Assembly: GCF_964355755.1 (NCBI RefSeq)
Contig: NC_092677.1
Coordinates: 18,942,101 to 19,006,100 of the forward strand
From: Antedon mediterranea
Lineage: Eukaryota > Echinodermata > Crinoidea > Comatulida > Antedonidae
Direction of reading: 5' to 3'
DNA: 64,000 nt
Position numbers and translations under genes: made by a program. The notes beneath the pieces are model-generated. The model was not told the DNA's origin, did not search any database, and worked only from the letters and a program-made list of their open reading frames with translations. Positions 3 to 64,000 of this stretch are shown here, one piece after another. The first letter of the stretch is position 1, and each line of letters opens with the position of its first letter.

Positions 3-275
3 AAAAGAGGCAGGGAGCTACGAGAAGAGCTAAAAATAAAAAGAAAAGATGGGCAGAAATGGAAGATAGAGAAAAACAAAGTTGTTCTAGTCACAACCAA
101 GAAGGATAACAATATTATGAAAGAAACTCCTGTAAAGGGTGCTGTACCTAAAGAAATAATGGTAGGAAGCAAATCGTTTACTGATTCAGAAGACAGTGAG
201 GAGGATGAGATATATGTGGAACGTCAACCTCATCAGCCCTTTCGGAGAACGAAAGGAACAGATGAGAGACGTTAG
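3..275 (+). CDS. LINE ORF1, C-terminal fragment
   Basis: An open frame enters from the window edge and stops with TAG at 273-275. It encodes about 90 residues. The start is basic and charged (RGRELREELKIKRKDG), resembling the end of the ORF1 nucleic-acid-binding proteins of CR1/L2-type LINEs, and an acidic stretch (DSEDSEEDE) follows. It overlaps the beginning of ORF2 by 80 bases in another frame, a normal ORF1/ORF2 arrangement. Assignment to ORF1 rests on position and composition only. Confidence 0.5.
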   Translation, partial: KRGRELREELKIKRKDGQKWKIEKNKVVLVTTKKDNNIMKETPVKGAVPKEIMVGSKSFTDSEDSEEDEIYVERQPHQPFRRTKGTDERR

Positions 276-3159
276 AAAACATGCAGAAGCTATAGAAAAT
301 GTAAATATTGTAAATAGAGAGTCTTTAAATGTTTATTACACAAATGCACAAAGTATTGTAAAAAAGATGGATGAACTCAAAATGGATATTGAACTCTACA
401 AGCCACACATTATTGGAATTACTGAAACGTGGGGCAAGCAAACAGTAACAGACGGTATACTTTCTATTCCTGATTACGACCTTTTCCGAAGGGATCATGA
501 TGGCGAAACCTCAGCAGGAGGAGTAATGTTGCTCTGTCACAAATCATTGCAGGCCACTTCATGCTATGTGCTAAATGAGAATCAGTTCAACGAAAGTATT
601 TGGTGCAAAATCAAGTTAACATTATATGAAACAATATTGATTGGAGTATGTTACCGAAGCTGTGTCAGTAGCTCAAGACAAAACAACAGAGCCCTCAATA
701 TACTAATCGAGGAATCCATGAAGCAGAATGTAACTCATAGACTGTTAATGGGAGACTTTAATTATCCCCAGATCAAGTGGGAGGAATATAGAGTGGAAGC
801 TGAAGGCATAAAGGGAGATGATGCTGAGAGTTTCTACGAAACAAGCCAAGACTTATTTCTACATCAGCATGTAATTGAGACGACAAGACACAAAGAAGGA
901 CAAAGGCCATCAATGCTTGACCTGGTATTGACAAATGATGAAAGTGCAGTTGAAGAGATACAACATTGTAGCCCACTTGGGAAAAGTGATCATGATGTAT
1001 TGTTTTTTGAGTATACCTGTTCAAGAAATCCTATTGGAAGTGATGAGAAAAAACAAAAGAATTACGCAAAAGGTGATTATGAGAAACTAAATGATTCATT
1101 TGGGAAATTAAATTGGGATGCTCTGCTTGATGATAAAAGTTGTAACCAGGCATGGGAAACATTTATGGAAATCTACAATGCAGAAACTGAAAAATATATA
1201 CCTAAGAGGTCAATGAGAAAGAACATGAAACCTGTATGGCTGAAAGCTAGAATAAAAAAGAGTATAAAGAAGAAACACAAATTATACAAAAAGTACAGAC
1301 AGACAAACCAGTACAAGGACTACCTTGAGTACAAGAAACAGAGGAATGTCGCAAGTGCAAACGTGAGAAAGGCACGTATAGAACATGAGCAAAAGTTAAT
1401 GAAGAACTTTAAGAAAAATCCTAAGCCAGTATACAAGTACATTAGGGAACAACAAAAAGTAAAAGAAGGTATAACTAATCTCGTAAAAGAAGATGGAAGT
1501 TTGACCGAAAATGACCAGGAAGCAGTTGAAATGTTGAGCAAATTTTTTCAATCTGTATATACCCATGAACCAGATGGTGACCTACCCCAGTTTGATAGCA
1601 GGAACAGCGACAACATTCTTGAAAATATTGTATTTTCGGTAGAAGATGTTCAGAAAAAATTAAATCAACAGCAACCAAACAAAGCTCCTGGTCCAGATGG
1701 TGTCCATCCTATGGTTCTGAACCAATGTGCCAGTTCTCTAGCTCATCCACTTACTATCATTTTCAAGCTCTCACTTGAGACAGGTAAATTACCAAAAGAT
1801 TGGAAGACTGCAAATGTCACACCAATTTTCAAGAAAGGATCCAAGAAGAAAGCTGAAAATTATCGGCCCATCAGCCTAACATCAATACCATGTAAAGTTT
1901 TTGAATCAATCATCAAAGACAATGTGCTTGGCTTTGTTAAAGGAAGTAGAATGCTGTCTAGGTGTCAACATGGATTCCTAAGTGGTAGGTCTTGTCTAAC
2001 AAATTTGCTACAAACATTCGAAACAGTCACTGAAGCTCTAGATAGTGGTGAAGATGTGGATATCGTATACCTTGATTATATGAAGGCGTTCGATAGTGTT
2101 CCACATCGAAGACTAATTCACAAGCTGATAGGCTATGGAATATCTGGTAAGACTATAAATTGGATAGCTGAGTTTCTGGCAGGAAGAACACAGAAAGTAA
2201 TTGTAAGAAATACAACATCCAAGCCGGTAGATGTAGTGAGTGGAGTCCCACAAGGATCAGTCCTTGGCCCAATCCTATTCATCCTCTTCATAAACGATCT
2301 TCCAGATAAAATTATCAGCGCAGACTTTAACATGTTTGCAGATGATGCAAAGATTATAAAGACCATCAAAGAAAAATCGGATTCAAGAAAACTTCAAATT
2401 GATCTTGATAGGGCTCAGGAATGGTCAGAGGACTGGCTGCTAAAATTCAATACCAAGAAATGCGAAGTGCTCCATGTTGGTAGAAAGACAGAGAAATCAG
2501 AATATTGTCTAAATGGAGAAACGTTATTGGCAGTAAAGGAAGAAAAAGACCTTGGTGTTATCTTCACTAGCGACTGCAAGCCAAGCCGACAGTGTGCTGC
2601 AGCAGCAGCTAGAGCGACGAATAGTATGAGAACTGTCAAAAGAACATTCAAAAATATTGACAAAGAAAGTTTTCAGGTCATGTACAAGGCATACATCCGT
2701 CCACATATGGAATACTGTATACAGTCCTGGTCTCCTTACTATAACAAAGACAAAGAAATCTTGGAGAAGGTGCAGAGAAGAGCTACAAAGATGGTCAAGT
2801 CAATAAGTGATCTACCATATGAAAAAAGGTTAGAATATCTTGATCTTCAACCATTAGAGACAAGAAGACTACGAGGAGATTTGATTGAAGCTTTCAAAAT
2901 TTTGAAAGGCTTTGAGGATATTGACCCAAAAGATTTATTTAAATTGTCTCACAACATCAGAACCAGGGGACACAGCTTAAAACTATATCGTCCAAAACTT
3001 AGAGGAAATCTTATGTGCAGGGTCAACTTTTTTACCATCAGAGTCATACATCACTGGAATTCTCTGCCTGAATATGTAATACAAGCCTCTTCAGTGAACA
3101 TCTTTAAGTCTAGACTTGACAACTATTTTCGGCTAGAAATGGAATCTAATAGGCACTAG
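196..3159 (+). CDS. LINE ORF2: APE endonuclease and reverse transcriptase, 987 aa
   Basis: This enzyme nicks target DNA and reverse-transcribes its own mRNA at the nick. The N-terminal third is an apurinic-like endonuclease: YYTNAQSIVKK near residue 50, GITETW (the catalytic Glu), LMGDFNYP, and SDHDVLFF near its end. The reverse transcriptase follows, with APGPDGVHP, the YRPISLTS block, YLDYMKAFDSVPH (first catalytic Asp), VPQGSVLGPILF, and FADDAK near residue 713 (the catalytic Asp pair). The C-terminal part (HMEYCIQSWSPYY, TRGHSLKLYRP) is usual for CR1/L2-type elements. No stop or frameshift interrupts it. The first Met at 196 precedes the endonuclease by about 45 residues and overlaps ORF1, so the true start may lie slightly downstream. 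CR1 versus L2 is not resolved. Confidence 0.93.
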   Translation: MRRMRYMWNVNLISPFGERKEQMRDVRKHAEAIENVNIVNRESLNVYYTNAQSIVKKMDELKMDIELYKPHIIGITETWGKQTVTDGILSIPDYDLFRRDHDGETSAGGVMLLCHKSLQATSCYVLNENQFNESIWCKIKLTLYETILIGVCYRSCVSSSRQNNRALNILIEESMKQNVTHRLLMGDFNYPQIKWEEYRVEAEGIKGDDAESFYETSQDLFLHQHVIETTRHKEGQRPSMLDLVLTNDESAVEEIQHCSPLGKSDHDVLFFEYTCSRNPIGSDEKKQKNYAKGDYEKLNDSFGKLNWDALLDDKSCNQAWETFMEIYNAETEKYIPKRSMRKNMKPVWLKARIKKSIKKKHKLYKKYRQTNQYKDYLEYKKQRNVASANVRKARIEHEQKLMKNFKKNPKPVYKYIREQQKVKEGITNLVKEDGSLTENDQEAVEMLSKFFQSVYTHEPDGDLPQFDSRNSDNILENIVFSVEDVQKKLNQQQPNKAPGPDGVHPMVLNQCASSLAHPLTIIFKLSLETGKLPKDWKTANVTPIFKKGSKKKAENYRPISLTSIPCKVFESIIKDNVLGFVKGSRMLSRCQHGFLSGRSCLTNLLQTFETVTEALDSGEDVDIVYLDYMKAFDSVPHRRLIHKLIGYGISGKTINWIAEFLAGRTQKVIVRNTTSKPVDVVSGVPQGSVLGPILFILFINDLPDKIISADFNMFADDAKIIKTIKEKSDSRKLQIDLDRAQEWSEDWLLKFNTKKCEVLHVGRKTEKSEYCLNGETLLAVKEEKDLGVIFTSDCKPSRQCAAAAARATNSMRTVKRTFKNIDKESFQVMYKAYIRPHMEYCIQSWSPYYNKDKEILEKVQRRATKMVKSISDLPYEKRLEYLDLQPLETRRLRGDLIEAFKILKGFEDIDPKDLFKLSHNIRTRGHSLKLYRPKLRGNLMCRVNFFTIRVIHHWNSLPEYVIQASSVNIFKSRLDNYFRLEMESNRH

Positions 3160-12599: not shown

Positions 12600-14281
12600 C
12601 AGTAGAACCCCTATTAAAGGGACACCTTCTGGAACTAAGGAAGTGTCCTAGGGGTGTCTGCTGTAACTAAGGAAGTGTCCTAGGGGTGTCTGCTGTAACT
12701 AAGGAAGTGTCCTAGGGGTGTCTGCTGTAACTAAGGAAGTGCCCTAGGGGTGTCTGCTGTAACTAAGGAAGTGTCCTAGGGGTGTCTGCTGTAACTAAGG
12801 AAGTGTCCTAGGGGTGTCTGCTGGAACTAAGGAAGTGTCCTAGGGGTGTCTGCTGTAACTAAGGAAGTGCCCTAGGGGTGTCTGCTGGAACTAAGGAAGT
12901 GTCCTAGGGGTGTCTGCTGTAACTAAGGAAGTGTCCTAGGGGTGTCTGCTGTAACTAAGGAAGTGTCTAGGGGTGTCTGCTGGAACTAAGGAAGTGTCTA
13001 GGGGTGTCTGCTGGAACTAAGGAAGTGTCTAGGGGTGTCTGCTGGAACTAAGGAAGTGTCCTAGGGGTGTCTGCTGTAACTAAGGAAGTGTCCTAGGGGT
13101 GTCTGCTGGAACTAAGGAAGTGTCCTAGGGGTGTCTGCTGTAACTAAGGAAATGTCCTAGGGGTGTCTGCTGGAACTAAGGAAGTGTCTAGGTATGTCTG
13201 CTGGAACTAAGGAAGTGTCCTAGGGGTGTCTGCTGTAACTAAGGAAATGTCCTAGGGGTGTCTGCTGGAACTAAGAAAGTGTCCTAGGGGTGTCTGCTGG
13301 AACTAAGGAAGTGTCCTAGGGGTGTCTGCTGGAACTAAGGAAGTGTCCTAGGGGTGTCTGCTGGAACTAAGGAAGTGTCTAGGGGTGTCTGCTGTAAGTA
13401 AGGAAATGTCCTAGGGGTGTCTGCTGGAACTAAGGAAGTGTCCTAGGGGTGTCTGCTGTAACTAAGGAAGTGTCCTAGGGGTGTCTGCTGTAACTAAGGA
13501 AGTGTCCTAGGGGTGTCTGCTGGAACTAAGGAAGTGTCCTAGGGGTGTCTGCTGGAACTAAGGAAGTGTCCTAGGGACGGTCTGCTGGAACTAAGGAAGT
13601 GTCCTAGGGGTGTCTGCTGTAACTTAGGAAGTGTCCTAGGAGTGTCTGCTGTAACTAAGGAAGTGTCCTAGGGGTGTCTGCTGGAACTAAGGAAGTGTCC
13701 TAGGGGTGTCTGCTGTAACTAAGGAAGTGTCCTAGGGGTGTCTGCTGGAACTAAGGAAGTGTCCTAGGGGTGTCTGCTGTAACTAAGGAAGTGTCCTAGG
13801 GGTGTCTGCTGGAACTAAGGAAGTGTCCTAGGGGTGTCTGCTGTAACTAAGGAAGTGTCCTAGGGGTGTCTTCTGGAACTAAGGAAGTGTCCTAGGGGTG
13901 TCTGCTGTAACTAAGGAAGTGTCCTAGGGGTGTCTGCTGTAACTAAGGAAGTGTCCTAGGGGTGTCTGCTGTAACTAAGGAAGTGCCCTAGGGGTGTCTG
14001 CTGTAACTAAGGAAGTGTCCTAGGGGTGTCTGCTGTAACTAAGGAAGTGTCCTAGGGGTGTCTGCTGGAACTAAGGAAGTGTCCTAGGGGTGTCTGCTGT
14101 AACTAAGGAAGTGCCCTAGGGGTGTCTGCTGGAACTAATTAGGAAGTGTCCTAGGGGTGTCTGCTGTAACTAAGGAAGTGTCCTAGGGGTGTCTGCTGTA
14201 ACTAAGGAAGTGTCTAGGGGTGTCTGCTGGAACTAAGGAAGTGTCTAGGGGTGTCTGCTGGAACTAAGGAAGTGTCTAGGG
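12600..14281 (+). repeat. 32-bp minisatellite, first block
   Basis: About 50 head-to-tail copies of a 32-bp unit (core AAGGAAGTGTCCTAGGGG followed by TGTCTGCTG(G/T)AACT). Variants include one-base-shorter units reading GTGTCTAGGGG and G/T alternation in CTGGAACT/CTGTAACT. The array starts from a unique word, CAGTAGAACCCCTATTAAAG, that resembles a MITE end. The block is cut at 14281 by the hAT-type element and resumes at 15809. Confidence 0.95.
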
Positions 14282-15808
14282 CAGCCGCGTAACAAGGGGG
14301 TCTTGTCAGGGGGGGCAAAGAGGGAAAAATCCTTCCAGACACCAAGTACTTGAGCCACAGCCCCCCCATGGTGGGGGCTGTGGCGAAGCGAATTTTGGTA
14401 AATGACACCCCTAGATCGTCGGAAATGGTACTCTCGCACATAAAATTCATGATAAATGGCGCCTAGCTAGTAGTAGTTGGCCTGGAAATAACACTCCCAT
14501 TTATTGCACAGAAGCAAAATGATCGTACATTTTCCACCGTTAAAAACTCAGGTGACATAACATTTGAACATGTGAAAACCCAATCTAACATTGGATCCGC
14601 ACCTGGCAAAGGTAGTAATTTTTCCGGTTAGAAGACTGAAACAGGGCCGTAACCAGGTTTGACGGCGGGGTGGATCGTTAAATTGTTTAGTGGAACCATA
14701 CCCTCGAATTATTTTTTCTCTATAGGCCTATGTATGGCCGCAAATCGCATTTCCGGCTAAACTCTTTTGTTTATGAACTATATAATTTGGTGAAATTTCC
14801 AGCCCACGAATTTCAATTGCCGACCTTAAATTGTCAGAGGAAGGCATTCTCTTGCCGACCGAAACTAGGCTAGATCCCTCCTCCCTTTAAGCCTCCTAAC
14901 AACAACATGGTACATTAAGGGATCGTATCATTGAGACTTTAACAGGCATATTCACCATCATGTGGTGTTTAGGTAACAAACCATGGAATTAAGGTGATCC
15001 CTGAATTCACTCAACCATTGCATCTTGCACTTGCGTGAGCTGCATGCTTTCTCTCTATACTATCAAGCAGCTGGCTGGGCACGTCACACGCACGCAGAGA
15101 CCTGTGTAGGGGAATACCCTTTTATGTCAAGCAAACAACTATGCTCTGTGCCACGATGTTCAGCAGTTATCAAATAGAATTTATCTTGTAAATTTAGTGT
15201 TAGGTTTTTATATTTTAGTTAAAATATACTTTATATTCTTATGTCGATTTATATTAATTAAATTTATTAAGGCTTGACTAGACCTGTAGTAAACAATCGT
15301 AGTGTTGTGTTAGTATGCCTGTGAAAGATTGAGTATTGGAGTGACAGCCAGCCACGAAAGTACGTTCATTTTGCTGATCGCTAGCGCGTTACATACGATT
15401 AGTAGGAGTGTATTTTTTTAAGGTGGCCTCACACGCACAGCACAGCGTCACAATTGTGTATGAGATGCCCGCGATGGCGGCTTAGATAAAAGACGCCAAA
15501 AACCAGTCAACTGACCGCATGTTAATGTACTGATAAGCAGTGCGTCTTCCCACGAGTTGTCAGTCAGGATTTTGTGTATTTCATATCATCTTACTTGAAT
15601 ATCATACTGTACTGTTGTGACTCATTTGAAGCCATATCATATATCGTATATTTTATTCTTATCTTATATTTTCTTTCTTCTATCCCTTCTTTGTATTTTA
15701 TTTTTTTTACTTGTTACCCAGCCCGATCGAACGCTTCTCAACCCGGTAAAATCCGCCAGGGGGGTATTCCGCCCCCCTGCCCCCCCCCCCCCGCCTGTTA
15801 CGCCACTG
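14282..15808. mobile_element. Nonautonomous hAT-type element (1,527 bp) inside the minisatellite
   Basis: The ends are inverted: CAGCCGCGTAACAAGGGGG on the left and, reverse-complemented, CAGTGGCGTAACAGGCGGGG on the right. The 8-bp word GTCTAGGG flanks both sides (14274-14281 and 15809-15816). An 8-bp duplication and CAG...CTG ends are diagnostic of hAT transposition. No transposase ORF is present. An internal word, CGGAAATGGTACTCTCGCAC, recurs near 56880 and in part near 53343, marking related elements. Confidence 0.85.
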
Positions 15809-17640
15809 GTCTAGGGGTGTCTGCTGGAACTAAGGAAGTGTCCTAGGGGTGTCTGCTGTAACTAAGGAAGTGTCCTAGGGGTGTCTGCTGGAACTAAGGA
15901 AGTGTCCTAGGGGTGTCTGCTGTAACTAAGGAAATGTCCTAGGGGTGTCTGCTGGAACTAAGGAAGTGTCTAGGGGTGTCTGCTGGAACTAAGGAAGTGT
16001 CCTAGGGGTGTCTGCTGTAACTAAGGAAATGTCCTAGGGGTGTCTGCTGGAACTAAGAAAGTGTCCTAGGGGTGTCTGCTGGAACTAAGGAAGTGTCCTA
16101 GGGGTGTCTGCTGGAACTAAGGAAGTGTCCTAGGGGTGTCTGCTGGAACTAAGGAAGTGTCTAGGGGTGTCTGCTGTAAGTAAGGAAATGTCCTAGGGGT
16201 GTCTGCTGGAACTAAGGAAGTGTCCTAGGGGTGTCTGCTGGAACTAAGGAAGTGTCCTAGGGGTGTCTGCTGGAACTAAGGAAGTGTCTAGGGGTGTCTG
16301 CTGGAACTAAGGAAGTGTCCTAGGGGTGTCTGCTGTAACTAAGGAAATGTCCTAGGGGTGTCTGCTGGAACTAAGAAAGTGTCCTAGGGGTGTCTGCTGG
16401 AACTAAGGAAGTGTCCTAGGGGTGTCTGCTGGAACTAAGGAAGTGTCCTAGGGGTGTCTGCTGGAACTAAGGAAGTGTCTAGGGGTGTCTGCTGTAAGTA
16501 AGGAAATGTCCTAGGGGTGTCTGCTGGAACTAAGGAAGTGTCCTAGGGGTGTCTGCTGTAACTAAGGAAGTGTCCTAGGGGTGTCTGCTGTAACTAAGGA
16601 AGTGTCCTAGGGGTGTCTGCTGGAACTAAGGAAGTGTCCTAGGGGTGTCTGCTGGAACTAAGGAAGTGTCCTAGGGACGGTCTGCTGGAACTAAGGAAGT
16701 GTCCTAGGGGTGTCTGCTGTAACTTAGGAAGTGTCCTAGGAGTGTCTGCTGTAACTAAGGAAGTGTCCTAGGGGTGTCTGCTGGAACTAAGGAAGTGTCC
16801 TAGGGGTGTCTGCTGTAACTAAGGAAGTGTCCTAGGGGTGTCTGCTGGAACTAAGGAAGTGTCCTAGGGGTGTCTGCTGTAACTAAGGAAGTGTCCTAGG
16901 GGTGTCTGCTGGAACTAAGGAAGTGTCCTAGGGGTGTCTGCTGGAACTAAGGAAGTGTCCTAGGGGTGTCTGCTGTAACTAAGGAAGTGTCCTAGGGGTG
17001 TCTGCTGGAACTAAGGAAGTGTCCTAGGGGTGTCTACTGGAACTAAGGAAGTGTCCTAGGGGTGTCTGCTGTAACTTAGGAAGTGTCCTAGGGGTGTCTG
17101 CTGGAACTAAGGAAGTGTCCTAGGGGTGTCTGCTGGAACTAAGGAAGTGTCCTAGGGGTGTCTGCTGTAACTAAGGAAATGTCCTAGGGGTGTCTGCTGG
17201 AACTAAGGAAGTGTCTAGGGGTGTCTGCTGGAACTAAGGAAGTGTCCTAGGGGTGTCTGCTGTAACTAAGGAAATGTCCTAGGGGTGTCTGCTGGAACTA
17301 AGAAAGTGTCCTAGGGGTGTCTGCTGGAACTAAGGAAGTGTCCTAGGGGTGTCTGCTGGAACTAAGGAAGTGTCCTAGGGGTGTCTGCTGGAACTAAGGA
17401 AGTGTCTAGGGGTGTCTGCTGTAAGTAAGGAAATGTCCTAGGGGTGTCTGCTGGAACTAAGGAAGTGTCCTAGGGGTGTCTGCTGTAACTAAGGAAGTGT
17501 CCTAGGGGTGTCTGCTGGACCTAAGGAAGTGTCCTAGGGGTGTCTGCTGGAACTAAGGAAGTGTCCTAGGGGTGTCTGCTGTAACTAAGGAAGTGTCCTA
17601 GGGGTGTCTGCTGGAACTAAGGAAGTGTCCTAGGGGTGTT
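15809..17640 (+). repeat. 32-bp minisatellite, second block
   Basis: About 57 more copies of the same 32-bp unit continue after the hAT insertion. Rare variants found in the first block recur here in the same order: CTGTAAGTAAGGAAATG at 13394 and 16494, CTAGGGACGGTCTG at 13571 and 16671, CTAGGAGTGTC at 13636 and 16736. The array ends in unique sequence (GTGTTTCCTGTATTTGGGTC). Confidence 0.95.
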
Positions 17641-20219: not shown

Positions 20220-23200
20220 TCACATTATTGGTATATAATTGTCAATCTTTCCTCGTTGGCGTTGGGCAACACATTCTCCAATCCAAACTACATTGCGACA
20301 CTCTTGTTCTTTTAACTTAAGGTAGGCATAGAAGACGCCATAATGAAACTGCTGGATGAAAGCTAGCACATTCAGTTTAACCTGAAAAATTTAAAAACCC
20401 TAAATGTTAATCACACAATATTATAATGTATATCAATCAAAATGAAAATAAGAAAACTTATTATAGCATTGCAAACTGTCTGTCAGATGTCAGCCTGTAC
20501 TGTCATATTTTTGTCTCTGAGGAAACAAAATCTATATGTATATTATATGCAAATAAAAAAAACACATACCTCATGTTCAAAAAACACATACCTCATGTTA
20601 AAAAAACACATACCTCATGTTAAAAAAACACATACCTCATGTTAAAAAAACACATACCTCATGTTTAAAAAACACATACCTCATGTTTAAAAAACACATA
20701 CCTCATGTTAAAAAAACACATACCTCATGTTTAAAACACACATACCTCATGTTTAAAACACACATACCTCATGTTTAAAACACACATACCTCATGTTAAA
20801 AAAACACATACCTCATGTTTAAAACACACATACCTCATGTTTAAAACACACATACCTCATGTTTAAAACACACATACCTCATGTTAAAAAAACACACATA
20901 CCTCATGTTTAAAACACACATACCTCATGTTAAAAAAACACATACCTCATGTTAAAAAAACACATACCTCATGTTAAAAAAACACATACCTCATGTTTAA
21001 AACACACATACCTCATGTTTAAAACACACATACCTCATGTTTAAAACACACATACCTCATGTTTAAAACACACATACCTCATGTTTAAAACACACATACC
21101 TCATGTTTAAAACACACATACCTCATGTTAAAAAAACACATACCTCATGTTAAAAAAACACCTACCTCATGTTCAAAAAACACATACCTCATGTTCAAAA
21201 AACACATACCTCATGTTCAAAAAACACATACCTCATGTTAAAAAAACACATACCTCATGTTAAAAAAACACATACCTCATGTTAAAATAACACATACCTC
21301 ATGTTTAAAAAACACATACCTCATGTTTAAAAAACACATACCTCATGTTTAAAAAACACATACCTCATGATAAAAAACCCATACCTCATGATAAAAAAAC
21401 CCATACCTCATGTTAAAAAAACACATACCTCATGTTAAAAAAACACATACCTCATGTTTAAAAAACACATACCTCATGTTTAAAAAACACATACCTCATG
21501 TTAAAAAAACACATACCTCATATTAAAAAAACACATACCTCATGATAAAAAAACACATACCTCATGTTTAAAAAACACATACCTCATGTTAAAAAAACAC
21601 ATACCTCATGATAAAAAAACACATACCTCATGTTTAAAAAACACATACCTCATGTTAAAAAAACACATACCTCATGTTTAAAAAACACATACCTCATGTT
21701 AAAAAACCACATACCTCATGTTTAAAAAACACATACCTCATGTTTAAAACACACATACCTCATGATAAAAAAAACACATACCTCATGTTAAAAAAACACA
21801 TACCTCATGTTCAAAACACACATACCTCATGTTCAAAACACACATACCTCATGTTAAAATAACACATACCTCATGTTAAAATAACACATACCTCATGTTA
21901 AAATAACACATACCTCATGTTTAAAAAACACATACCTCATGTTTAAAAAACACATACCTCATGTTTAAAAAACACATACCTCATGTTTAAAACACACATA
22001 CCTCATGTTCAAAAAACACATACCTCATGTTTAAAACACACATACCTCATGTTTAAAACACACATACCTCATGATAAAAAACCCATACCTCATGATAAAA
22101 AAACCCATACCTCATGTTAAAAAAACACATACCTCATGTTTAAAAAACACATACCTCATGATAAAAAAACACATACCTCATGTTTAAAACACACATACCT
22201 CATGTTAAAAAAACACATACCTCATGTTTAAAACACACATACCTCATGTTTAAAAAACACATACCTCATGTTTAAAAAACACATACCTCATGTTTAAAAC
22301 ACACATACCTCATGTTAAAAAAACACATACCTCATGTTTAAAAAACACATACCTCATGTTAAAAACACACATACCTCATGATAAAAAACCACATACCTCA
22401 TGTTAAAAACACACATACCTCATGTTAAAAAAACACATACCTCATGTTAAAAAAACACATACCTCATGTTAAAAACACACATACCTCATGTTTAAAAAAC
22501 ACATACCTCATGTTAAAAACACACATACCTCATGTTTAAAAAACACATACCTCATGTTCAAAACACACATACCTCATGTTAAAAAAACACATACCTCATG
22601 TTAAAATAACACATACCTCATGTTAAAAACACACATACCTCATGTTAAAAACACACATACCTCATGTTTAAAACACACATACCTCATGTTAAAAACACAC
22701 ATACCTCATGTTTAAAACACACATACCTCATGTTTAAAAAACACATACCTCATGTTAAAAAAACACATACCTCATGTTTAAAAAACACATACCTCATGTT
22801 AAAAACACACATACCTCATGTTTAAAAAACACATACCTCATGTTAAAAACACACATACCTCATGTTTAAAAAACACATACCTCATGTTCAAAACACACAT
22901 ACCTCATGTTAAAAAAACACATACCTCATGTTAAAATAACACATACCTCATGTTAAAAACACACATACCTCATGTTAAAAACACACATACCTCATGTTTA
23001 AAACACACATACCTCATGTTAAAAACACACATACCTCATGTTTAAAACACACATACCTCATGTTTAAAAAACACATACCTCATGTTAAAAAAACACATAC
23101 CTCATGTTTAAAAAACACATACCTCATGTTAAAAACACACATACCTCATGTTCAAAAAACACATACCTCATGTTAAAAACACACATACCTCATGTTAAAA

Positions 23201-26200
23201 GAACACATACCTCATGTTAAAATAACACATACCTCATGATAAAAAACCACATACCTCATATTAAAAGAACACATACCTCATGTTCAAAAAATTTGTCCTC
23301 TAACGTTTTATCACCAGGGTTGGTTCCAGCACCCTCAAACAAAGCTTTATATTCCTATACAAAAATAAGTGATAATATAACTTAAATCTACTTGACAAAC
23401 CATTGTATAATATTGGTAGGAGGAAGAGATCAAAGAATAAAATCAAACCAAGCTGAGGATATTGTTTTGTTGGAACACTTACAGCATAGTAGTCTGCAAC
23501 GGCCCTCACTTGCTCATAGTCGTCACACTTGGCCAAAGCAGCAAGACCATCTGGGGCTAGCTGACCACAGCTGGGGTAAAGCCGGGCACGGTCCTCTTTC
23601 GTCAACTCTGTTCCAAATGAGTTGATTGTAATGATAAAGGCTCTCCTATCTGCTTCAAACTAAAGAAAACAATTTATAACTACTGACTATTTTAATGTGA
23701 TAATTTTATTTATGCAGACCCGCCATTTATTGTATGCTCACTGCGTTTAATCATAACGGGTACTTAACAGACCACGCCATGATGGCCCAAAAAGAATGAT
23801 TATACTTTATTTTCATACGCTCTTTTAAATTCTATTTCTTATCTTGTTCTTTCTTATAACTAGCATGTGTCTTCATTATGTGATGACTTACTTACCCCCA
23901 ATATTTTACACATGACATCAGCAGTCGTTCCGCCAAGGGATTGACAGAATTTGTAGAAAGATTCCAAGTAAGCTTTATAAAGTGTGTTCCTAATGATCTC
24001 AATATTCATCTCATCTAGATCTTGTTCAGATATACATTCTTGAAAGAATGGTGCTAGCAAAAATAGCAAACAGTTTATTTAAAGACATCATTTGATAATC
24101 AGTTGTTTATAATTTTTTAAAAACCTAGACAGGTTTATTTACCTATTCTGCTATAAAAACCAGTAGACCTTTTATTGCAGAAGTTGAACCAAGTTATATT
24201 ACATAGTAATCTGACTGACTCTTAATTATGTGTAATTGCCTATCCATTTATATAAAGAATAGGATTTATTGGGTAACTTTAACTATTACTCCACTGATTT
24301 CCTGGAACATTAAAAAAAAGGCAGACGAAAAAATATGAAACTACTGTATTATTGGAATGTATGATCAATAGAAGTGAGCTAAAGTAAAAAGGGAAATATC
24401 TCACTGACTTAAGTGGCATTGGTGATTACGGCCACTGGTTCTCGTAAAGGAAACAATGGAACTTAAAGAAAAAAAAATGGAAACATCTATAAAGTCTGTT
24501 TTCCAGTTGACATTGAGTTGCGTTGAGTTTTCAAATCGTTAAAATTGAGAATAAATAACAACAATGATGATGTATATTTACACATTTTTTCGTGATTGTT
24601 TTTTGGTTCTATTGAGTATTGCTGGGACATTTTGTTTCTATTTTGTTCAACAATTTGTAAACCATTTGATTGGTCAGTTTTAACAATACTATCTTATCTT
24701 ATTGTAGAGCAAGTAAAAACTACAAAACAAGAGCGACCTAGGCCACTATGACTCAGTGAAATAAATGTTTTAACCTAACATATAGGCTTAAAGATATATT
24801 GTCTCCCTGAAAAGATTTTTTTGTAAATGTTTTATTTGAATATGCCGTTTGAATGTCAGATAGTTATTCACTTGACCAACAAATTATTTACCGAAAAAAC
24901 TGTAATTCCAACCAAAAAAATTGTCAAATTGACTGGAAGTGAATGGGTTTTTTTGTTGATTTTTTTTTTTTATACGAAGTGATTAACTTTATTATTAATC
25001 TTCATTTTTCATGTTTTTTTGGGGACAATATCACATACATACCAAGTGGTGTATCAACAATAATAGCATTGAAGAGCTCCGCTGGAGTGCTTGCAATGTT
25101 TACTGCTTCCATTTGCTCAAAGCTTCCTAAAGGATGACACTTGGAGATCAGTTCTGAAATGGATCGTTGATGAAGAGTTCCAGTGATTAGCAGAATGATG
25201 TTGTCAATCATATAACTATACCTGTTTAAAGTTAAACACAAAAAAATAAAAATTACTTTCAGTCACATAAAAGGTAAGTGTGAGTCCTGTATTCCTTCTG
25301 GACATAAGGAATGAGCTGTGAGCTGTTTGGAGTGCATTGTACTAAGCAGTTTTGGGCCTTATTGAGATCAAAGGGGTCCTTAATTGGAATATATGATATG
25401 TAAACTTACGTAATGTAATCCAGAAACGTGGATAGAGGTGCCACAGCCTGATTCCGGATGTGTTGGAATTCAATCACCAACTTCTCCTTCAGTTTATCAT
25501 CAATCACAGATACGTTTAATGGAGAAGGTTCGTTTGCCAAGAAATTTCCATAATCTGTACTCTGAAGGTGCAACTTCAAATCTAATTTTAAACATGTAAT
25601 TATAAGTATTGCTCCGAACAACACTACAGTATCAGCAGTAACACTAACAGCATTTTTATTGATACTACGGTATATTGAAATAAAACATGTTTTTCACCAA
25701 TGTGCTATTTATTATTTTCCGAGTGAAACTAGCCTATCTACTAATCTGTTTTCTTTGTAATTTCTTTCTGTTTTTTCTCCCAGCGCTTTAGGACAATCTT
25801 TTGATTGTAAAAGCACTTTATAAATCGAACAACATTACATTACATACAACAATGACAAGTGCATGTAAGCCGATTTATAGTAAACTTATTTAAAAATATT
25901 TTAGAACAGAACATACATATTCAACAATATTTAACAATATTTACAATTCTGGGAGCCGAAATGATGAATGTAGGACCAGTTTTTCCATCTTGGTGACCTG
26001 AATTTGACCGTTCCCTAGCCTGGTAAACCCCTAGCCTCCTAGCTAGGCTAGTAGTAAGTAGGCCTACTGTAGTAGTAGTAAGTAACAGCCGAAATTATCA
26101 GACACCGGTGTCACTGTCAGGTGAAGGTGGTAGGCCTAGCTAGGTCAGCCTTCCCTCTCTCTGTCTGAGTGAGTCTAGCCTAGCTACTAGCTAGGGCCTT

Positions 26201-26545
26201 AGACTTAATGCCTCCAGGCCCTAGTAGTAGGGGCCTAAGTAGTAGTAGTGAGTAGGCCTAGTAGGCCTAGTAGTAGTAAGAGGCGTATTAATATTAGGCT
26301 AGGCCTAGGCTAGACTAGCTAAGGCCTAGGCCCTAGCTAGCCTAGCTAGTAGGCCTACCGGCCTAGGCTAGGCCTAGAGATAGTGTAGGCTAGAGATTGC
26401 GTTTTTTTTTTTACTCACCCTCTAGAATTTCACATTGTACAAGATTTAGATAGTCCGTTTGCTTCAAGATTCCGCCTTTGAAGCCCCGAATTAAACCTTC
26501 TAAATATCCATCATTTATATTGAAAGTAATTTCAGGCATATACAT
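20220..26545 (-). CDS. ATP6V0D1: V-type proton ATPase V0 subunit d, 350 aa, 7 coding exons
   Basis: Subunit d caps the V0 c-ring and links it to the rotating central stalk of the V-ATPase in acidifying membranes. Coding exons in transcript order: 26545-26419, 25581-25410, 25221-25043, 24053-23896, 23659-23483, 23354-23277, 20381-20220. All boundaries are GT/AG with matching phases. They sum to 1,053 bases: 350 codons plus TGA, against 351 residues in human d1. Recognisable stretches are [121 protein letters not shown] and the C-terminal [14 protein letters not shown] chose the start MYMPEITF by comparison with the family N-terminus; MPEITF two codons later is possible. The last intron is filled by an unusual 22-bp array, and a TTAA element lies 10 bp past the exon 3 donor. 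Confidence 0.96.
20555..23285 (-). repeat. 22-bp minisatellite made of copies of a 5' splice site (about 124 units)
   Basis: The plus-strand unit is ACACATACCTCATGTT plus A-rich filler, period 22 bp. On the transcribed strand it reads AACATGAGGTATGTGT followed by a T-rich spacer. Its first copy is the real exon 6/intron 6 junction of ATP6V0D (GAACATGAG|GTATGTGT, boundary 23277/23276). Some units keep the exonic C (GTTCAAAA on the plus strand, TTTTGAACATGAG on the gene strand), matching the exon end most closely. Variants alter mainly the T-rich spacer, while the MTGAGGTATGTG core is almost invariant. Confidence 0.95.
24792..25030. mobile_element. TTAA-type MITE in ATP6V0D intron 3
   Basis: The left end TTAA|AGATATATTGTCTCCCTG and the right end GGGGACAATA are inverted copies of the ends seen at 32578 and 39093. 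Shared interior words such as GAATGGG and a T-rich stretch confirm the family. The right end lies about 10 bp from the 5' splice site of ATP6V0D exon 3. Confidence 0.6.
25740..25855 (+). repeat. Possible SINE/LINE 3' tail
   Basis: The words CCCAGCGCTTTAGGAC and TTGTAAAAGCACTTTATAAA, followed by a run of ACATT repeats, resemble the common GCGCTATATAAAT-type 3' ends of L2-mobilised SINEs. No tRNA-like head was seen nearby, so this is a weak call. Confidence 0.3.
26000..26395. repeat. TAGGCCTA/CTAG-rich tract in ATP6V0D intron 1
   Basis: About 400 bp is dominated by overlapping TAGGCCTA, GCTAGCC, CCTAGGCC and TAGTAGTAG words. It begins shortly inside the first intron. A matching tract lies at 28015-28310 in AHCY intron 1. 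This is low-complexity palindromic sequence without coding content. Confidence 0.75.
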
Positions 26546-40655: not shown

Positions 40656-40741
40656 TCAATAATAGTCCTCACTGCCAGTGTTCTTGTGTGGTACAAGAGA
40701 ATTAATGCCTAATAATCTGCTTGGTTGCTATTACAATTATT

Positions 40742-41655
40742 ATTCTGTACAAGTGCACCCTTTTACTACACATACACCTACTGATGGTGCTGCTGCTGCA
40801 CACCTTCTACACAACATTGTACAAGTGCACCCTTTTACTACACATACACCTACTGATGGTGCTGCTGCTGCTGCTGCACACCTTCTACACAACATTGTAC
40901 AAGTGCACCCTTTTACTACACATACACCTACTGATGGTGCTGCTGCTGCACACCTTCTACACAATATTGTACAAGTGCACCCTTTTACTACACATACACC
41001 TACTGATGATGATGGTGCTGCACACCTTCTACACAACATTGTACAAGTGCACCCTTTTACTACACATACACCTACTGATGCTGCTGCTGCTGCTGCACAC
41101 CTTCTACACAATATTGTACAAGTGCACCCTTTTACTACACATACACCTACTGATGATGATGGTGCTGCACACCTTCTACACAACATTGTACAAGTGCACC
41201 CTTTTACTACACATACACCTACTGATGATGATGGTGCTGCTGCACACCTTCTACACAACATTGTACAAGTGCACCCTTTTACTACACATACACCTACTGA
41301 TGATGATGGTGCTGCTGCACACCTTCTACACAACATTGTACAAGTGCACCCTTTTACTACACATACACCTACTGATGATGATGGTGCTGCTGCTGCTGCA
41401 CACCTTCTACACAACATTGTCCAAGTGCACCCTTTTACTACACATACACCTACTGATGATGATGGTGCTGCTGCTGCTGCTCACCTTCTACACAACATTG
41501 TACAAGTGCACCCTTTTACTACACATACACCTACTGATGATGATGGTGCTGCTGCTGCACACCTTCTACACAACATTGTACAAGTGCACCCTTTTACTAC
41601 ACATACACCTACTGATGATGGTGCTGCTGCTGCACACCTTCTACACAACATTTTC
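40742..41655 (+). repeat. Composite VNTR, 12 units of 66-78 bp, open in frame
   Basis: Twelve tandem units each contain a constant part (GTACAAGTGCACCC onward through CACACATACACCTACT, in slightly varied form) and a variable part of GAT and GCT triplets. Unit lengths differ by multiples of three, so one frame stays open for 344 codons (40678-41712), encoding repeats like VQVHPFTTHTPTD followed by D/G/A runs and HLLHNI. Other frames on both strands are also open, and no promoter or known domain is visible, so coding is unproven. It lies about 0.8 kb downstream of AHCY. Confidence 0.9.
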
Positions 41656-41712
41656 CACCATACAGTTTTGACACAGACCGACAGTTGCATTCTGGGTAAT
41701 AATGACTTATAA

Positions 41713-44112: not shown

Positions 44113-47100
44113 ATGTCTAATAATAATAATACGCTATCAATAGTTTCAATGAACTGTCGAGGTCTAGCAGAAAAATCAAAACGCAAAGATGTGTTACACT
44201 ATCTAAAGTAAAAAAAATACAATATTATCTGCCTCCAAGATGTACACTTCTCGGCAGAAACTGAGTCACTTGTTAGATTGGAGTGGGGCCTTGATTGTTT
44301 TTTTAGTTCATATCGTAGTAATGCAAGGGGAGTCGCAATCTTTTTCAATAATAACTTTCCCTACACTGTTACAAAGCATAAAAAAGATAATGATGGAAAT
44401 ATGTTAGCTTTGGAGGTAAAGGTTGATGATCTAAAATCTACGCTAATCTCAATTTATGGGCCCAACAACGACACCCCCGGTTTTTACGACAAAATGAGGG
44501 AAGTTGTTTTAGAATATGAAAACCCACATAATATCGTTTGCGGCGACTGGAACTGTATTTTGGACAAAAAATTAGACTGTAAAAATTATCTAAAACTTAA
44601 TAATCCAAAGGCAAGAGAAAAGATAATAAATATTTGTAGTGAATTTAATCTTACAGATGTTTGGCGTGTTTACAACCAAGAAGAACAAAAGTTTACCTGG
44701 AGACAAATTCAATAAACAAGCCAGGCTTGATTATTTCCTAATCTCATCTGAACTAAACAGCAAAATGCTGGATTGTAATATAAAACCAGGCTACCGAACC
44801 GATCACTCACTTGTAGATATTAAAATGACGATGAACCAGATAAAACACGGGCCAGGATACTGGAAATTTGACAATACCTTATTAAAAGATATTCAATACG
44901 TGCAACAAGTTAAAGAAACCATAAATAGAGTCCTAAAACAATATATAGTGCAAAACGAAAAAGATAATAAAGATGCTAATAAAGCGCTGTTTAGCATCAG
45001 TGATCAACTTCTTTTAGAAATGATATTAATGGAAATTAGAGCAAAAACAATTTCTTACGGGGCTTATAAGAAAAAGATTGAAAATAAAAAAGAAAAAGAA
45101 TTAGAAAGGGAAATAGAAAAAATAACACTTGATACCAATAAGGGCGACGCCACGTTAAACGATACACTAGAACTTAAGTCCGGCGAACTTATGAGTATCT
45201 TAACATGGAAAAGAAAAATTTTGTTGATAAAACTATAAATAAAATAGTAAAGGAAAGCAACAATAGTATTCTGCAAAACACAAATGAAATTCTTGTTGAG
45301 TCTAGACACTTTTATAAAAACCTTTATTCCTCAAACCACAATACAGATGATGAAAAAAATATTGTAAAACTTCTTAAAACTATGAATACATTACCAACAT
45401 TAACAAAAGAACAACAAAATAAAATTGAAGGGCCAATTACTTATAATGAACTTTTAGTGGCTCTTAAGAGGTCACAAAATGGAAAGTCACCTGGTATTGA
45501 CGGCTTTAGCTATGAGTTTTTTAAGTTCTTTTTTGCGGATTTAGTTTGCTATCTTTTGAGAGCTATTAACGAGTCGTATAACTCAGGTCAACTGTCAACT
45601 TCCCAAAAGTCAGGAATAATTACTTTACTCCCTAAGGGGGATAAACCCAGAGAGTATCTAAAAAACTGGAGACCTATTACCCTGTTAAGTGTCACTTATA
45701 AACTTGTTTCGTCATGCATTGCAGAACGAATAAAATCGGTCCTTGATATATTAATTAGTTAACAACAGAAAGGATTTATTAATGGGAGATATATAGGCGA
45801 AAATACAAGACTTATGTATGATGTTATTCAAATTTGTGAAAGGAAGAAAATTCCTGGTCTGCTTTTACTGATAGACTTTGAAAAAGCGTTCGACTGCATT
45901 TCTCACACATTTGTTAACTGCGTTCTTAAACATTTTAACTTCGGACAATCCATTCAAAAATGGGTGAAAGTACTATATAAAGATGCAAGATCCTCAGTTC
46001 TTGTCAATGGCTTTCTCTCCGAATCATTCTTAATCGAAAGAGGATGTAGACAAGGGGATGGGTTGAGTCCATACCTGTTTCTTCTGTGCGCAGAAATTTT
46101 ATCCTCAATGATATCTGAAAATAAACAAATTAAAGGAATATCAATTGCAAATCATGAGTATCGATTATCTCAGTATGCGGACGACACTGTATTGTTTCTT
46201 GACGGTAAAGAAAAGTCAATGCACGAAGCATTTAAGACTCTCGACGTATTTTCCAAAATTTCCGGGCTAAAAGTGAATGTGAACAAAACAAATGCTGTCT
46301 GGGTTGGCTCTTTTAAAGACCGAGGTGACTCAATATGCGAAAACTATAATATAAAATGGATCAAACATGGAGAACCCTTTGAATCATTGGGTATTCGGTT
46401 TAGTACAAATTTAAATAAAATGGTAGATTTGAACTATGAAGACGTATATAAATCAATAAAAAATACAATGAGACATTGGACAAAAAGAAACTTAACTGTT
46501 TTGGGAAGAATCACGGTAGTGAAGTCTTTATTACTGTCCAAACTTACCTATATCCTTTCGACATTACCCGATCCCCCTGAAAATGTAATAAAATCACTCA
46601 AGTCAGAACTATATCGTTTCATATGGAAAGGGGTGGATAGAATATCCAGAGATCAACTTATACAAGAAAATAAATTTGGAGGCTTACGAATGGTCGATAT
46701 AAACGCATATATTCAATCGGTAAAAATCACGTGGGTTAGACGGTTAGTAACGTCCAATGAGACGGGATGGGCTCTTTTAGTTCCACTCGTGTTGAATATT
46801 CATAAAACTTGGCTCATAGAAGGCGGATCATCGAAATTAATCAAATTAGCGAAGGTTAAGCCTTACAATGCATTTTGGCTGGATGTAATAAAGGCGTGGT
46901 GCGTATTTGTGAAACACAACACTCCTATGAGCACCGAGTCGATATGTAGACAAACACTCTGGATGAATGACAATATTAAAGTCGGCGGAGAAAGTATCTA
47001 TTATAAAAACTGGAGTAATCATGGGGTGAATTTTATAAATGATTTAGTTGATAGACATGGAATAACTCCATTAAAACAACTTAGTAAACGTCATAATCTT

Positions 47101-47857
47101 AACATCAACTTTCTTCAATATGAAGGCCTAATACATGCGGTCAGACAACATACGTCTTTATATCAAATTTTTCCAAAAGGAAAAATAAATAGCCCACTAC
47201 TACCTTTTAACCTTAGCGTAGTAATAAAAAATAAAAAAGGATCAAAGCTAATTTATAATACTCTAATCAACTCTAGAAAAAAACAATCGAAAGCTAAAAT
47301 TAAGTGGAAGAAGGCACTGGATACTTTATATGTTGATAAAGAGTGGGAAATTATTAATACCATGTTTTTCTCACTTACTATGTCCACACCACTAATCTGG
47401 TTTCAATATAAAATTGTGCATAGAATTTTAGGTAATAACTCCTTTTTGTATAAAATTGGGAAAATTGACTCACCTTTATGTGCTTTATGTAAAGCAGAAA
47501 CAGAAACCTTAACACATATTTTTGCACAATGCTGTGAAATTAAAATATTTTGGAGAAAGATTAAACAATGGTTGAAATCATATTTTAATATAAATGTAAT
47601 TATCAACCCCGAATTATGCCTTTTTGGAGTTAGAAAAAAAAACATTTAAAGCCCTAAATACTATTTTACTAATTTGTCGACACTACATATATAGCTGTAA
47701 AATGAGAAAAATTAAGCCTAATATTGCTCGATTCGTGAATGAGATTAAGTTACACGTTAAACAAGAAGAATTTATTTTGAAAACTAAAGGGGAGCATCAT
47801 ACTTACTTAAACAAATGGAGTCCTTTCTTGGAAAAACATGAACTTATTGACTGGTAA
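44113..47857 (+). pseudogene. Tx1/L1-like LINE ORF2, disrupted
   Basis: This is an endonuclease plus reverse transcriptase of the L1/Tx1 branch. It starts at SIVSMNCRGLAEKSKRKDVL, then CLQDVH, IYGPNNDTPGFY and VCGDWNC, and after a frameshift RLDYFLISSE and YRTDHSLVDI (endonuclease). The RT follows: GKSPGIDGFSYEFFK, NWRPITLLSVTYK, LLLIDFEKAFDCISH, GCRQGDGLSPYLF, QYADDTVLFLDG. A C-terminal zinc-binding stretch, CALCKAETETLTHIFAQC (CxxC, H, C), is usual in this branch. It is broken by in-frame stops at 44209 and 45760 and by frameshifts near 44710, 45205-45238 and 47635, the last at an A-run. All catalytic motifs survive, so decay is recent to moderate, but it cannot make a full protein. Confidence 0.88.
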
Positions 47858-57600: not shown

Positions 57601-60600
57601 TTCAACCGCAATCATAATCTGCAAGCTTACGTGGCCAGTGTACATGTCGTCCGCTACGCGTTTGCCGTGGCGGAGGTGCGACTGGAATAGCACTTGCGGT
57701 TGGGGAAAGCCCTGCTTCCGGTTGCCTTGACGATTCTGGAAAGTTGTTAATAGCTTTACCATTATTTACATAGGCGACTTTTAGTCTGTCCAAACTAACA
57801 GTTTCATGTTTACCTGCGATGCTCAAAACAAAGTATTTGTCAGTTCTGTTTAAAACTTTAAATGGCCCATTGTAAGGAGACTGAAGAGGTTTCTTTACGC
57901 TATCGCAACGAACAAACACGTGAGTACATTCACGCAAATCGTCGTGGATTTGTGCGGTGCGTTGATTCGCTCGTGTTGGCACTGGTCGAATATTCTGCAT
58001 GTGTCTTTGCAATCTATGTACGTAATTCGCAGGCTCATGTGAGGCGATATCAGTAGGCGCGACAAACTGCCCCGGAAGTTTCAGGGTTGCTCCATACACC
58101 AGTTCCGATGAAGAACAGCCTAAATCAACTTTGACCGCTGTCCGGAGACCCAGAAGAACTAAAGGTAAAGTTTCACTCCACTTCTGAGGATCATCTTGAG
58201 CCTTAAGCGAAACCTTTAATTGGCGGTGAAAACGTTCAACTAATCCATTTGACATAGGATGGTAAGATGTTGTTCGAATGCGTTTTGTGCCCAACATGTT
58301 AGATAGGGCGGTGAATAGTGCCGATTCGAACTGACGACCACGGTCTGTAGTGATGGTGGATGGCGCACCGAATCTGGATACCCAAACAGTGACAAACGCT
58401 TTGGCTACAGTTTCAGCGGTAATATTGGTGATTGATATGGCCTCTGGCCATCTTGTAAAGCGATCGATACATGTAAGTAGGTAAGTATAACCATCCGATA
58501 CAGGTAGAGGTCCTACCAAGTCTATGTGGACGTGGTCGAATCTTATGTCGGGCGTCGCAAACGTACCTAATGGTGTCACAGTGTGGCGATGAACCTTATT
58601 CTTCTGGCATTTTAAACAACACTTAGCCCATGTCCGCACATCACTGTTCATACCAGGCCAAACATACCGTGAAGCGATTAATTTTAGTGAAGCTCGAATC
58701 CCTGGATGAGAAAGTGAATGCAAAGAGTCAAACACTAACCTACGCATACCTTTGGGCACGAACGGTCTATGATTACCAGTGGTGACATCGCATACAATAG
58801 TACCGCCGCTAGTCGCTATCGGTACGTCTCTCAACTTGAAAACAGACTTATGCTGATGTTCGAGCAACTCCGCATCTTTTTGCTGGTGCCTAGCCATGAC
58901 GTCATAATCAATAGAAAGCTCCGATGAAGCTGACACTGCATTCAAGTCCATACGTGACAGTGCGTCTGCTACGGTATTCTCGCTACCCTTGACGTGTCGA
59001 ATGTCCGTGGTAAACTGTGAGACGTAGTCTAAGTGACGTATCTCTCGCGGCGAATATCGATCTGCGCTGGAACGTAATGCGTGTGTTAAAGGTTTATGGT
59101 CAGTTAAGATATAAAATGTTCTAGCTTCTAGAACGTGGCGAAAATGCTTAACTGCAAGATAGGTAGCTAGTAATTCCCGTCCAAAAGTACTATATCTCCT
59201 TTCCACCGGATTTAGACGTCGGGAAAAAAATGCAAGTGGATGCCAAATCCCTGCTACCATTTGTTGCAACACACCACCTACAGCGCAATTGGACGCATCT
59301 ACCATTAAACACAATGCAGCGTCAGGATGTGGATGTTCTAGAAGAGTTGATTCGACGAGTGCATACTTGACCTTGTTGAACGATTCAATTTCCGTCGGAG
59401 ATAGTTCAATCGCCTTTTTAGGTTTACCGACAAGTAAATCAGTTAATGGATGAATCAAATCCGAACATCTAGGTATAAACCGTCTGTAGAAATTAATTAA
59501 TCCCAGAAACTCACGTAATTTACGCACAGTATCTGGTACTGGAAACTGTTCAATCGCCTCAACCTTGGAACGCAATGGCTGTATCCCAAACTCGTTAATT
59601 TGATGACCTAAAAATTGTAGTGAAGACACACCCCATACACACTTGGACGGATTAACAATGATACCAAATTCATCGAGACGTTTAAAAAGTGCCTGAAGAT
59701 GCAATTCATGTTCAGCAGTATCCATGCTGGCAATAAGTAAGTCATCAATGTAAGCATACACGAAATTCATACCCCGCAACACCTGGTCAATAAAGCGCTG
59801 AAATGACTGTGCCGCATTTCGAAGACCAAATGGCATTCTTAAGAACTCGAACATGCCAAACGGCGTAGTAATAGCGGTTTTTGAAATGTCTTTAGGATCG
59901 ACGGGTATTTGATGATATGCACGTACCAAATCTATCTTAGAAAAAATCTTGCAACCCGAGAGAGTCGCGGTAAAGTCATGAATGTGAGGGATGGGGTACA
60001 TATCTGGAACAGTCACATTATTTAACGCTCGGTAGTCCCCACATGGCCTCCAATCACCTGTTGTTCCTTTAGGCACCATGTGTAGCGGCGACGACCAGTT
60101 ACTATCTGAGGGCCGTATAATTCCTAATTGTAACATATGATCAAATTCAGCCCGTGCAATTTTCAATTTCTCAGAAGACAATCGGCGAGGTCTGGCACAA
60201 ACTGGCAACCCATTTGTATTTATCTGATGTGTAACGTTATGTTTCACGCTTCCATTACGAAAACATGGTTTGGTAATCGTTTTATATTTGTTTAATATTT
60301 CCTGAAAACGAGGATTTACTTTTGGGGTCGGAAAGACCGGACTAAGTGATGCTAGGGTACATTCTATTCCCTTGACACTGATACTAGTAGTAGCATCGAA
60401 AAGTTTACGATTTTTTAAGTCCACAATTAAACCAAAACGTCGTAAAAAGTCGGCCCCAATAATCGCATTAGGCACATCAGCAACAGTAAATATCCACCTA
60501 TACGTGCGTCGAAATCCAAAATCAACTGTTAAGGAACGCTCCCCATAAGTAGATATTGTAGATTTGTTTACTGCTTGCAATACAAAGTCAGTTTTTCGGT

Positions 60601-63947: not shown

Positions 63948-64000
63948 GTATATTATTTAATCAATTTTACATTTTTGACTTTTAACATTGTGTGTTCTGT

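What the first reader, a model, noticed from the sequence alone, without database searches (positions are those of the whole stretch)
20555..23285. Minisatellite built from a gene's own 5' splice site
The 22-bp unit of this roughly 124-copy array is, on the gene strand, AACATGAGGTATGTGT plus a T-rich spacer. The array ends exactly at the ATP6V0D exon 6 donor, GAACATGAG|GTATGTGT, and units that keep GAACATGAG match the coding exon end. So an exon/intron junction, including the last codons of a coding exon, appears to have been the seed of a tandem expansion. The MTGAGGTATGTG core is nearly invariant, while the T-rich spacer varies. I know of no described satellite made of a host gene's own donor site.
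Basis: partly seen in the sequence, partly recalled or inferred. Interest (0 to 1): 0.92.

Follow-up and report, generated by a model that had tools for sequence, protein, structure and literature searches.

The report
Tandem array of a gene's splice site
In a feather star, the last 15 coding letters of one exon plus the first 7 letters of the following intron are repeated about 124 times in a row inside that intron; the same kind of array sits in several other genes of this animal, and it belongs to a rare but already described kind of repeat.

Summary
The gene is ATP6V0D (V-ATPase subunit d), minus strand; the 350-aa product joined from the window is 100% identical to an Antedon mediterranea (crinoid) protein. 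Exon 6 ends TTTTTTGAACATGAG|GTATGTG. This whole 22-mer is the array unit, including the "T-rich spacer", which in the exon encodes Phe-Phe. There are 124 donor cores; 119 have the true donor's -3..+6. The exonic unit and the most distal unit are identical. The encoded FFEHE is conserved (20 of 24 animal proteins aligned), so the exon seeded the array. Without the array the intron is 188 nt. Every later donor tried brings the same early stop ([11 protein letters not shown]). The 15-mer core has 108 places in the genome, 107 of them here: not a genome-wide satellite.

The claim of no precedent is wrong: amphioxus "mirages" and the human IFI6 minisatellite are of this kind. New here: of 19 donor-motif arrays read in this 354-Mb genome, 6 start inside a coding exon and run through its donor (ATP6V0D, DHX8, TDP2, UTP6, a rabaptin, a TPR gene). 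So junction seeding recurs in this crinoid. No RNA or population data were available; splicing and function are inferred. Likely a near-neutral slippage product spliced at the first donor.

The parts
20556..23291 (-). 22-bp tandem array, about 124 units; gene-strand unit TTTTTTGAACATGAG|GTATGTG and variants; 2707 nt from first to last donor
23270..23291 (-). founder (seed) unit: last 15 nt of exon 6 (codons F F E H E) plus first 7 nt of intron 6
20563..20584 (-). most distal unit, identical to the seed unit; followed by further T and unique intron sequence
22463..23144 (-). 15-unit (330-bp) block in two tandem copies inside the array: the run of 16 unit types at 23144 recurs at 22814 (longest repeated run 16; 200 shuffles of unit order: mean 4.2, maximum 7)
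23277..23354 (-). ATP6V0D exon 6 (78 nt, [26 protein letters not shown])
20382..23276 (-). intron 6, 2895 nt with the array, 188 nt without it
20220..20381 (-). ATP6V0D exon 7, coding part and stop (VKLNVLAF...NYIPIM*)
23483..23659 (-). ATP6V0D exon 5
23896..24053 (-). ATP6V0D exon 4
25043..25221 (-). ATP6V0D exon 3
25410..25581 (-). ATP6V0D exon 2
26419..26545 (-). ATP6V0D exon 1, coding part

Best explanation
A junction-seeded intronic minisatellite ('mirage' type). Shown: the unit is the last 15 nt of ATP6V0D exon 6 plus the first 7 nt of intron 6; it lies directly downstream of its founder; both end units keep the founder sequence; the encoded residues are conserved in other animals, so copying went from exon to intron. 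Inferred: the pre-expansion allele read ...AAATTTTTTGAACATGAG|GTATGTGTTTTTTTTATTTGC..., with a T tract in the exon and another in the intron 22 nt apart. Slippage or short-homology repair between the two T tracts would duplicate exactly 22 bp including the donor. The array then grew and was homogenised by slippage and unequal exchange (15-unit block duplication). It is tolerated because the spliceosome pairs the exon-proximal donor with the acceptor; a later donor inserts about 22n nt with an immediate stop, so such transcripts would be non-productive (nonsense decay expected from about donor 5 on). Function is most likely none. The same kind of event has happened at donors of at least five other genes of this genome.
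For: Unit equals exon end plus intron start, exact over 22 nt, sharp 5' limit. First and last unit identical to seed. FFEHE in 20 of 24 animal proteins aligned (24 picked by hand from the 120 listed hits) and in the best PDB chain, V-ATPase subunit d 1. 100% match of the product joined through donor 1 to the Antedon mediterranea record. T tracts at both ends of the seed. 330-bp block duplication and excess of identical neighbours, 31 versus mean 17.6 in shuffles. The same immediate stop for donors 2, 3, 4, 5, 10 and 124, all the later ones that were tried. Five more arrays in this genome with the unit starting in a coding exon tail: DHX8 29 nt, TDP2 23 nt, rabaptin-like 11 nt, UTP6 22 nt with 2-3 mismatches, TPR gene 32 nt. 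Coding on both sides shown by homology for DHX8, TDP2, UTP6 and rabaptin, and by long open frames with weak TPR matches for the TPR gene.
Against: No RNA was read, so use of donor 1 rests on a database protein that may be a gene prediction. No orthologous intron without the array was available, so the pre-expansion allele is inferred. FFEHE is not conserved beyond animals in what I saw: the chains shown from other entries (7uw9, 36qu) have FYEEE. The T-tract mechanism fits this locus but not all others: I saw no comparable short homology at the rabaptin array. 12 of the 19 donor-motif arrays examined show no coding exon at their 5' end and one more shares only 5 nt with the exon, so a donor-like motif in an array does not by itself mean junction seeding.
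Confidence: 0.88

Rival explanations
1. The array is a functional donor ladder: about 120 equal 5' splice sites compete for U1 and give a controlled share of stop-containing transcripts, tuning V-ATPase d output, somewhat like the multiple donors used in IFI6.
For: 119 of 124 units keep the true donor's nine-mer GAGGTATGT; GAGGTA is kept in 124 of 124, though units were found by that word; the later donors tried are all unproductive; IFI6 is reported to use two downstream repeat units as donors (PMC4526556 passage).
Against: Core conservation is what homogenisation of a young array gives; the core excess is weak on independent events (P = 0.029). Arrays in DHX8, TDP2, UTP6, rabaptin and the TPR gene have unrelated units and copy numbers, which argues against a gene-specific device. 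In amphioxus mirages are reported not to disturb regular splicing.
Confidence: 0.07
2. An unrelated genome-wide satellite landed in the intron and its match to the exon end is chance or gene conversion of the exon.
For: The genome has many minisatellites, several with donor-like words.
Against: 107 of 108 genome places of the 15-mer ACATGAGGTATGTGT are in this array and the other is a lone one. 15 of the 22 bp encode a conserved peptide. No exact copy of the exon 15-mer lies elsewhere in the window.
Confidence: 0.02
3. The units are recursive-splicing ratchet points (T tract, AG|GT), so the intron is removed stepwise.
For: Each unit reads T-tract...GAG|GTATGT, i.e. AG followed by a donor.
Against: The AG is preceded by G (GAG), a poor acceptor (recalled rule); units are 22 nt apart, too short for splicing between neighbours; the 188-nt base intron needs no such help.
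Confidence: 0.02

Closest known systems
'Mirages' of amphioxus (Adh3, TnC, globins BflGb6 and BflGb9; similar imperfect repeats in PGBD5)
   Same: Minisatellite-like tandem repeats that span an exon-intron boundary, many with AG/GT signals; concerted evolution inside, boundary units left out of it (passages read in PMC3087553; PMC3902484).
   Different: There in a cephalochordate; BflGb6 has 6 and 3 units of 150-160 bp in two haplotypes and Adh3 units are 10-72 bp; acceptor and donor sides known. Here an echinoderm, donor side, 22 bp, about 124 copies, plus five further genes. The original Adh paper was not held.
Human IFI6 (6-16, G1P3) minisatellite
   Same: A minisatellite that supplies several splice donor sites (title of Turri 1995 seen in reference lists; a passage of PMC4526556 says two downstream repeat units serve as donors).
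   Different: There later donors are used and give isoforms; here every later donor tried adds a stop at once and use is untested. The paper itself is not held; its 12-bp unit at the exon-2 donor is recalled.
Intron gain by tandem duplication of AGGT (Rogers model)
   Same: Tandem copying of a segment that contains AG|GT inside a gene (listing only; discussed in the PMC3087553 passages).
   Different: No new intron is made here; an existing short intron is lengthened.

Membership tests
'Mirage' minisatellite | Tandem repeat whose unit spans an exon-intron boundary | tested here: met
   15 exonic + 7 intronic nt, exact
'Mirage' minisatellite | Units carry AG/GT splice signals | tested here: met
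   124 GAG|GTA; 119 with the true donor's -3..+6
'Mirage' minisatellite | Homogenisation inside, ancestral units at the borders | tested here: met
   Both end units equal the seed; 15-unit block duplication. By my arithmetic the last unit being a seed copy has chance 5/123, so this row is modest support
'Mirage' minisatellite | Length instability between alleles, somatic change | not testable with these tools
   one assembly only
'Mirage' minisatellite | Normal mRNA splicing kept | tested here: inconclusive
   product with donor 1 matches the NCBI protein 100%, which may be a gene prediction; no RNA read
IFI6-type donor minisatellite | Later units used as donors in transcripts | not testable with these tools
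   only the predicted outcome computed: early stop
Genome-wide satellite | Same unit at many loci | tested here: not met
   107 of 108 places of the 15-mer core are in this array

The most novel reading that the evidence does not exclude
This crinoid has a recurrent, perhaps lineage-specific mutational process that turns 5' splice junctions into tandem arrays across many genes, for example breaks or re-replication favoured at donors by co-transcriptional U1/R-loop structures. The resulting donor ladders would be raw material for exon extension and intron gain.
Probability: 0.2. Interest if true: 0.8.

Novelty: new member of a known kind. Interest (0 to 1): 0.5.

Why it matters
It shows with unusual clarity (exact founder, both end units ancestral, conserved coding seed) that a splice junction can seed a minisatellite. 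It extends a phenomenon known to me from amphioxus and human IFI6 to an echinoderm, with six genes in one genome. Because nearly every unit is a complete donor, such loci are natural tests of how the spliceosome picks one donor among more than a hundred equal ones, and of intron lengthening or gain by tandem duplication.

Tried and rejected
Considered and rejected: genome-wide satellite; selection on the donor core as a firm claim (too few independent events); recursive splicing (poor GAG acceptor, 22-nt spacing); a general T-tract or short-homology rule for all arrays (not seen at rabaptin). L051 (31-bp array with CAG|GTAAGT) looked like another case but lies antisense to an open exon of a gene that I take for titin-like (name recalled). 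L064 starts at a donor-like site of an open exon but shares only AAAAG with it, not counted. Twelve arrays with donor words showed no coding exon at the 5' end by eye: L009, L048, L049, L050, L051, L053, L054, L057, L059, L060, L061, L063. One of the 20 distinct arrays found, C3:22236198, was not read. An array-level control with the reversed motif could not be run: the genome search stayed busy. I have only the tool's place counts, 528 versus 180 reversed for AGGTATGT triples and 468 versus 311 for AGGTRAGT triples, which count places, not arrays. Three further surveys did not complete: AGGTAAGT triples with wide gaps and with narrow gaps, and AGGTGAGT triples. Papers: all 10 searches used; no listed title or abstract start tells of a crinoid or other echinoderm case. 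Of those listings I looked for passages in PMC3087553, PMC3902484, PMC2812944, PMC3618361, PMC2572611, PMC4526556, PMC2721852 (donor sites in echinoderms; no 'minisatellite', 'tandem' or 'crinoid') and PMC12783039 (earthworm intronic minisatellites, no junction-seeded unit in the passages). Subscription journals are not held.

Full report
What is there. The window is most likely from a crinoid, Antedon mediterranea: the 350-aa V-ATPase subunit d joined from seven minus-strand exons is 100% identical to a record of that species (taxonomy), and the next best hit is a starfish at 89%. The own assembly has 354 Mb in 18 contigs and the window is C8:18942101-19006100. Tandem Repeats Finder places a 22-bp array of 124.3 copies at 20556-23291.

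The unit. Exon 6 ends ...AAATTTTTTGAACATGAG and intron 6 begins GTATGTG. The exon tail of 15 nt recurs exactly 6 times in the array, 16 nt never. Donor cores: 124, 119 of them with the true donor's -3..+6. Six of 124 units, the exonic one included, are identical to the seed, among them the first and the last.

Direction. FFEHE is present in 20 of 24 animal subunits that I picked from the 120 listed hits and aligned (variants FYEHE, FFEYE twice, FFDRE), and in the best PDB chain; two further PDB sequences shown (7uw9, 36qu) have FYEEE. A satellite cannot be expected to deliver a conserved coding tail, so the exon is the founder. The 15-mer ACATGAGGTATGTGT has 108 places in the genome, with 0 for the reversed control; 107 are in this array and the remaining one, on C3, is alone.

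How it grew. Beyond the last unit the intron reads GTATGTGTTTTTTTTATTTGC. Joined to the exon this gives a founder with T tracts 22 nt apart, so one slip between them duplicates exactly this unit; this step is inference. Within the array a 15-unit block of 330 bp is duplicated in tandem (longest repeated run of unit types 16 versus a maximum of 7 in 200 shuffles) and identical neighbours are in excess (31 versus mean 17.6, maximum 26). Most non-seed cells are at seed positions 7 and 2 (155 of 186). Core positions 11-22 hold 5 of 186 non-seed cells, but only 10 derived alleles exist, 2 of them in the core (P = 0.029). That is compatible with a mutable T run and does not show selection.

What it does to splicing. 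The intron is 2895 nt, 188 without the array; the other introns of the gene are 128-989 nt. Use of donor 2, 3, 4, 5, 10 or 124 always gives [11 protein letters not shown]; the stop lies 1, 23, 45, 67, 177 and 2686 nt before the new exon junction, so nonsense decay would be expected from about donor 5 (general rule, recalled). The productive protein needs donor 1. No transcript was read.

Is it alone? In the window, none of 27 other junctions has tandem copies. In the genome, three patterns were searched and only the first 100 listed places of each could be seen: TGAGGTATGTGT (214 places), three AGGTRAGT in tandem (468 places) and three AGGTATGT in tandem (528 places). The two triple lists reach only into C3, the first into C8. 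They gave 20 distinct arrays including this one; I read the 5' end of 19 (not C3:22236198, which has the same 23-bp unit as C3:21102838). Six of 19 have a unit that begins inside a coding exon and runs through its donor: ATP6V0D; DHX8 (L047, 37-bp unit, 29 exonic nt); TDP2 (L052, 31 bp, 23 nt); a rabaptin (L055, 17 bp, 11 nt); UTP6 (L058/L065, 31 bp, 22 nt with 2-3 mismatches); a TPR protein (L062/L066, 39 bp, 32 nt). The exons before and after the array join into one recognisable protein for DHX8 (E 1.9e-58), TDP2 (E 3.9e-35), UTP6 (E 2.1e-34) and rabaptin (PF09311, E 7.2e-20; the exons before the array alone gave only E 1.7e-4, below Pfam's cut-off). For the TPR gene the support is open frames and weak TPR matches (E 2.8e-4, below Pfam's cut-off). 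One further array (L064) starts at a donor-like site but shares only 5 nt with the exon. Twelve show no coding exon at their 5' end; non-coding exons were not tested. Reading past the first donor meets an in-frame stop early in all six.

Known or new. [quoted passage not shown] The human IFI6 minisatellite 'provides multiple splice donor sites' (title in reference lists; paper not held). So the kind is known. What I did not find in ten searches of open-licence papers (listed under Tried and rejected) is any crinoid or echinoderm case, or six genes in one genome. An array-level control with a reversed motif could not be run, so enrichment at donors is not measured; the place counts (528 versus 180, 468 versus 311) only hint at it.

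Verdict. Real, clearly explained in origin, an impressive member of a known kind; function probably none. The recurrence in this genome is the most interesting lead.

Noticed in passing
L058 (C1:454400-455000) and L065 (C1:455090-456000): UTP6: the array intron is bounded by CCAG|GTATGTAG at the donor and CTAAG|GTATGTGG at the next exon's start, i.e. AG|GTATGT on both sides, as expected if the intron itself arose by tandem duplication of an AGGT segment.
   Followed up: partly
L062 (C2:637950-638650): TPR gene array: the usual 39-bp unit is a multiple of 3 and, by eye, stop-free in the exon's frame (adds 13 residues per unit); the first intronic unit is 40 bp and breaks the frame.
   Followed up: partly
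G000:C3:21102838-21107987 and C3:22236198-22237307: The same 23-bp unit AGGTATGTACACACTATAACAAA forms arrays at two places 1.1 Mb apart; one starts at a donor-like site of an open exon (L064).
   Followed up: partly
12629-17639: One 32-bp minisatellite (CTGTAACTAAGGAAGTGTCCTAGGGGTGTCTG), about 109 copies, split by a foreign stretch of about 1.5 kb (14282-15810).
   Followed up: no
62434-63952: A second, partial AHCY copy on the + strand (another AHCY at 31.7-39.9 kb) with a 17-bp minisatellite (63089-63390) in its intron, not at a junction.
   Followed up: partly
40666-41712: 75-bp tandem repeat that stays open as a 348-codon frame (VQVHPFTTHTPTDGAAAAHLLHNI repeats), with further open frames; no gene evidence.
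   Followed up: no
166-3159; 44212-47649; 57602-61602: Long reverse-transcriptase-like frames: two non-LTR types on + and a gypsy-like polyprotein on - (names recalled from the sequence, not searched).
   Followed up: no
L009 (C5:4890500-4900400): 62-bp array of 48 copies with TGAG|GTATGTG, 99% alike, next to an 81-bp repeat; no coding exon found.
   Followed up: partly
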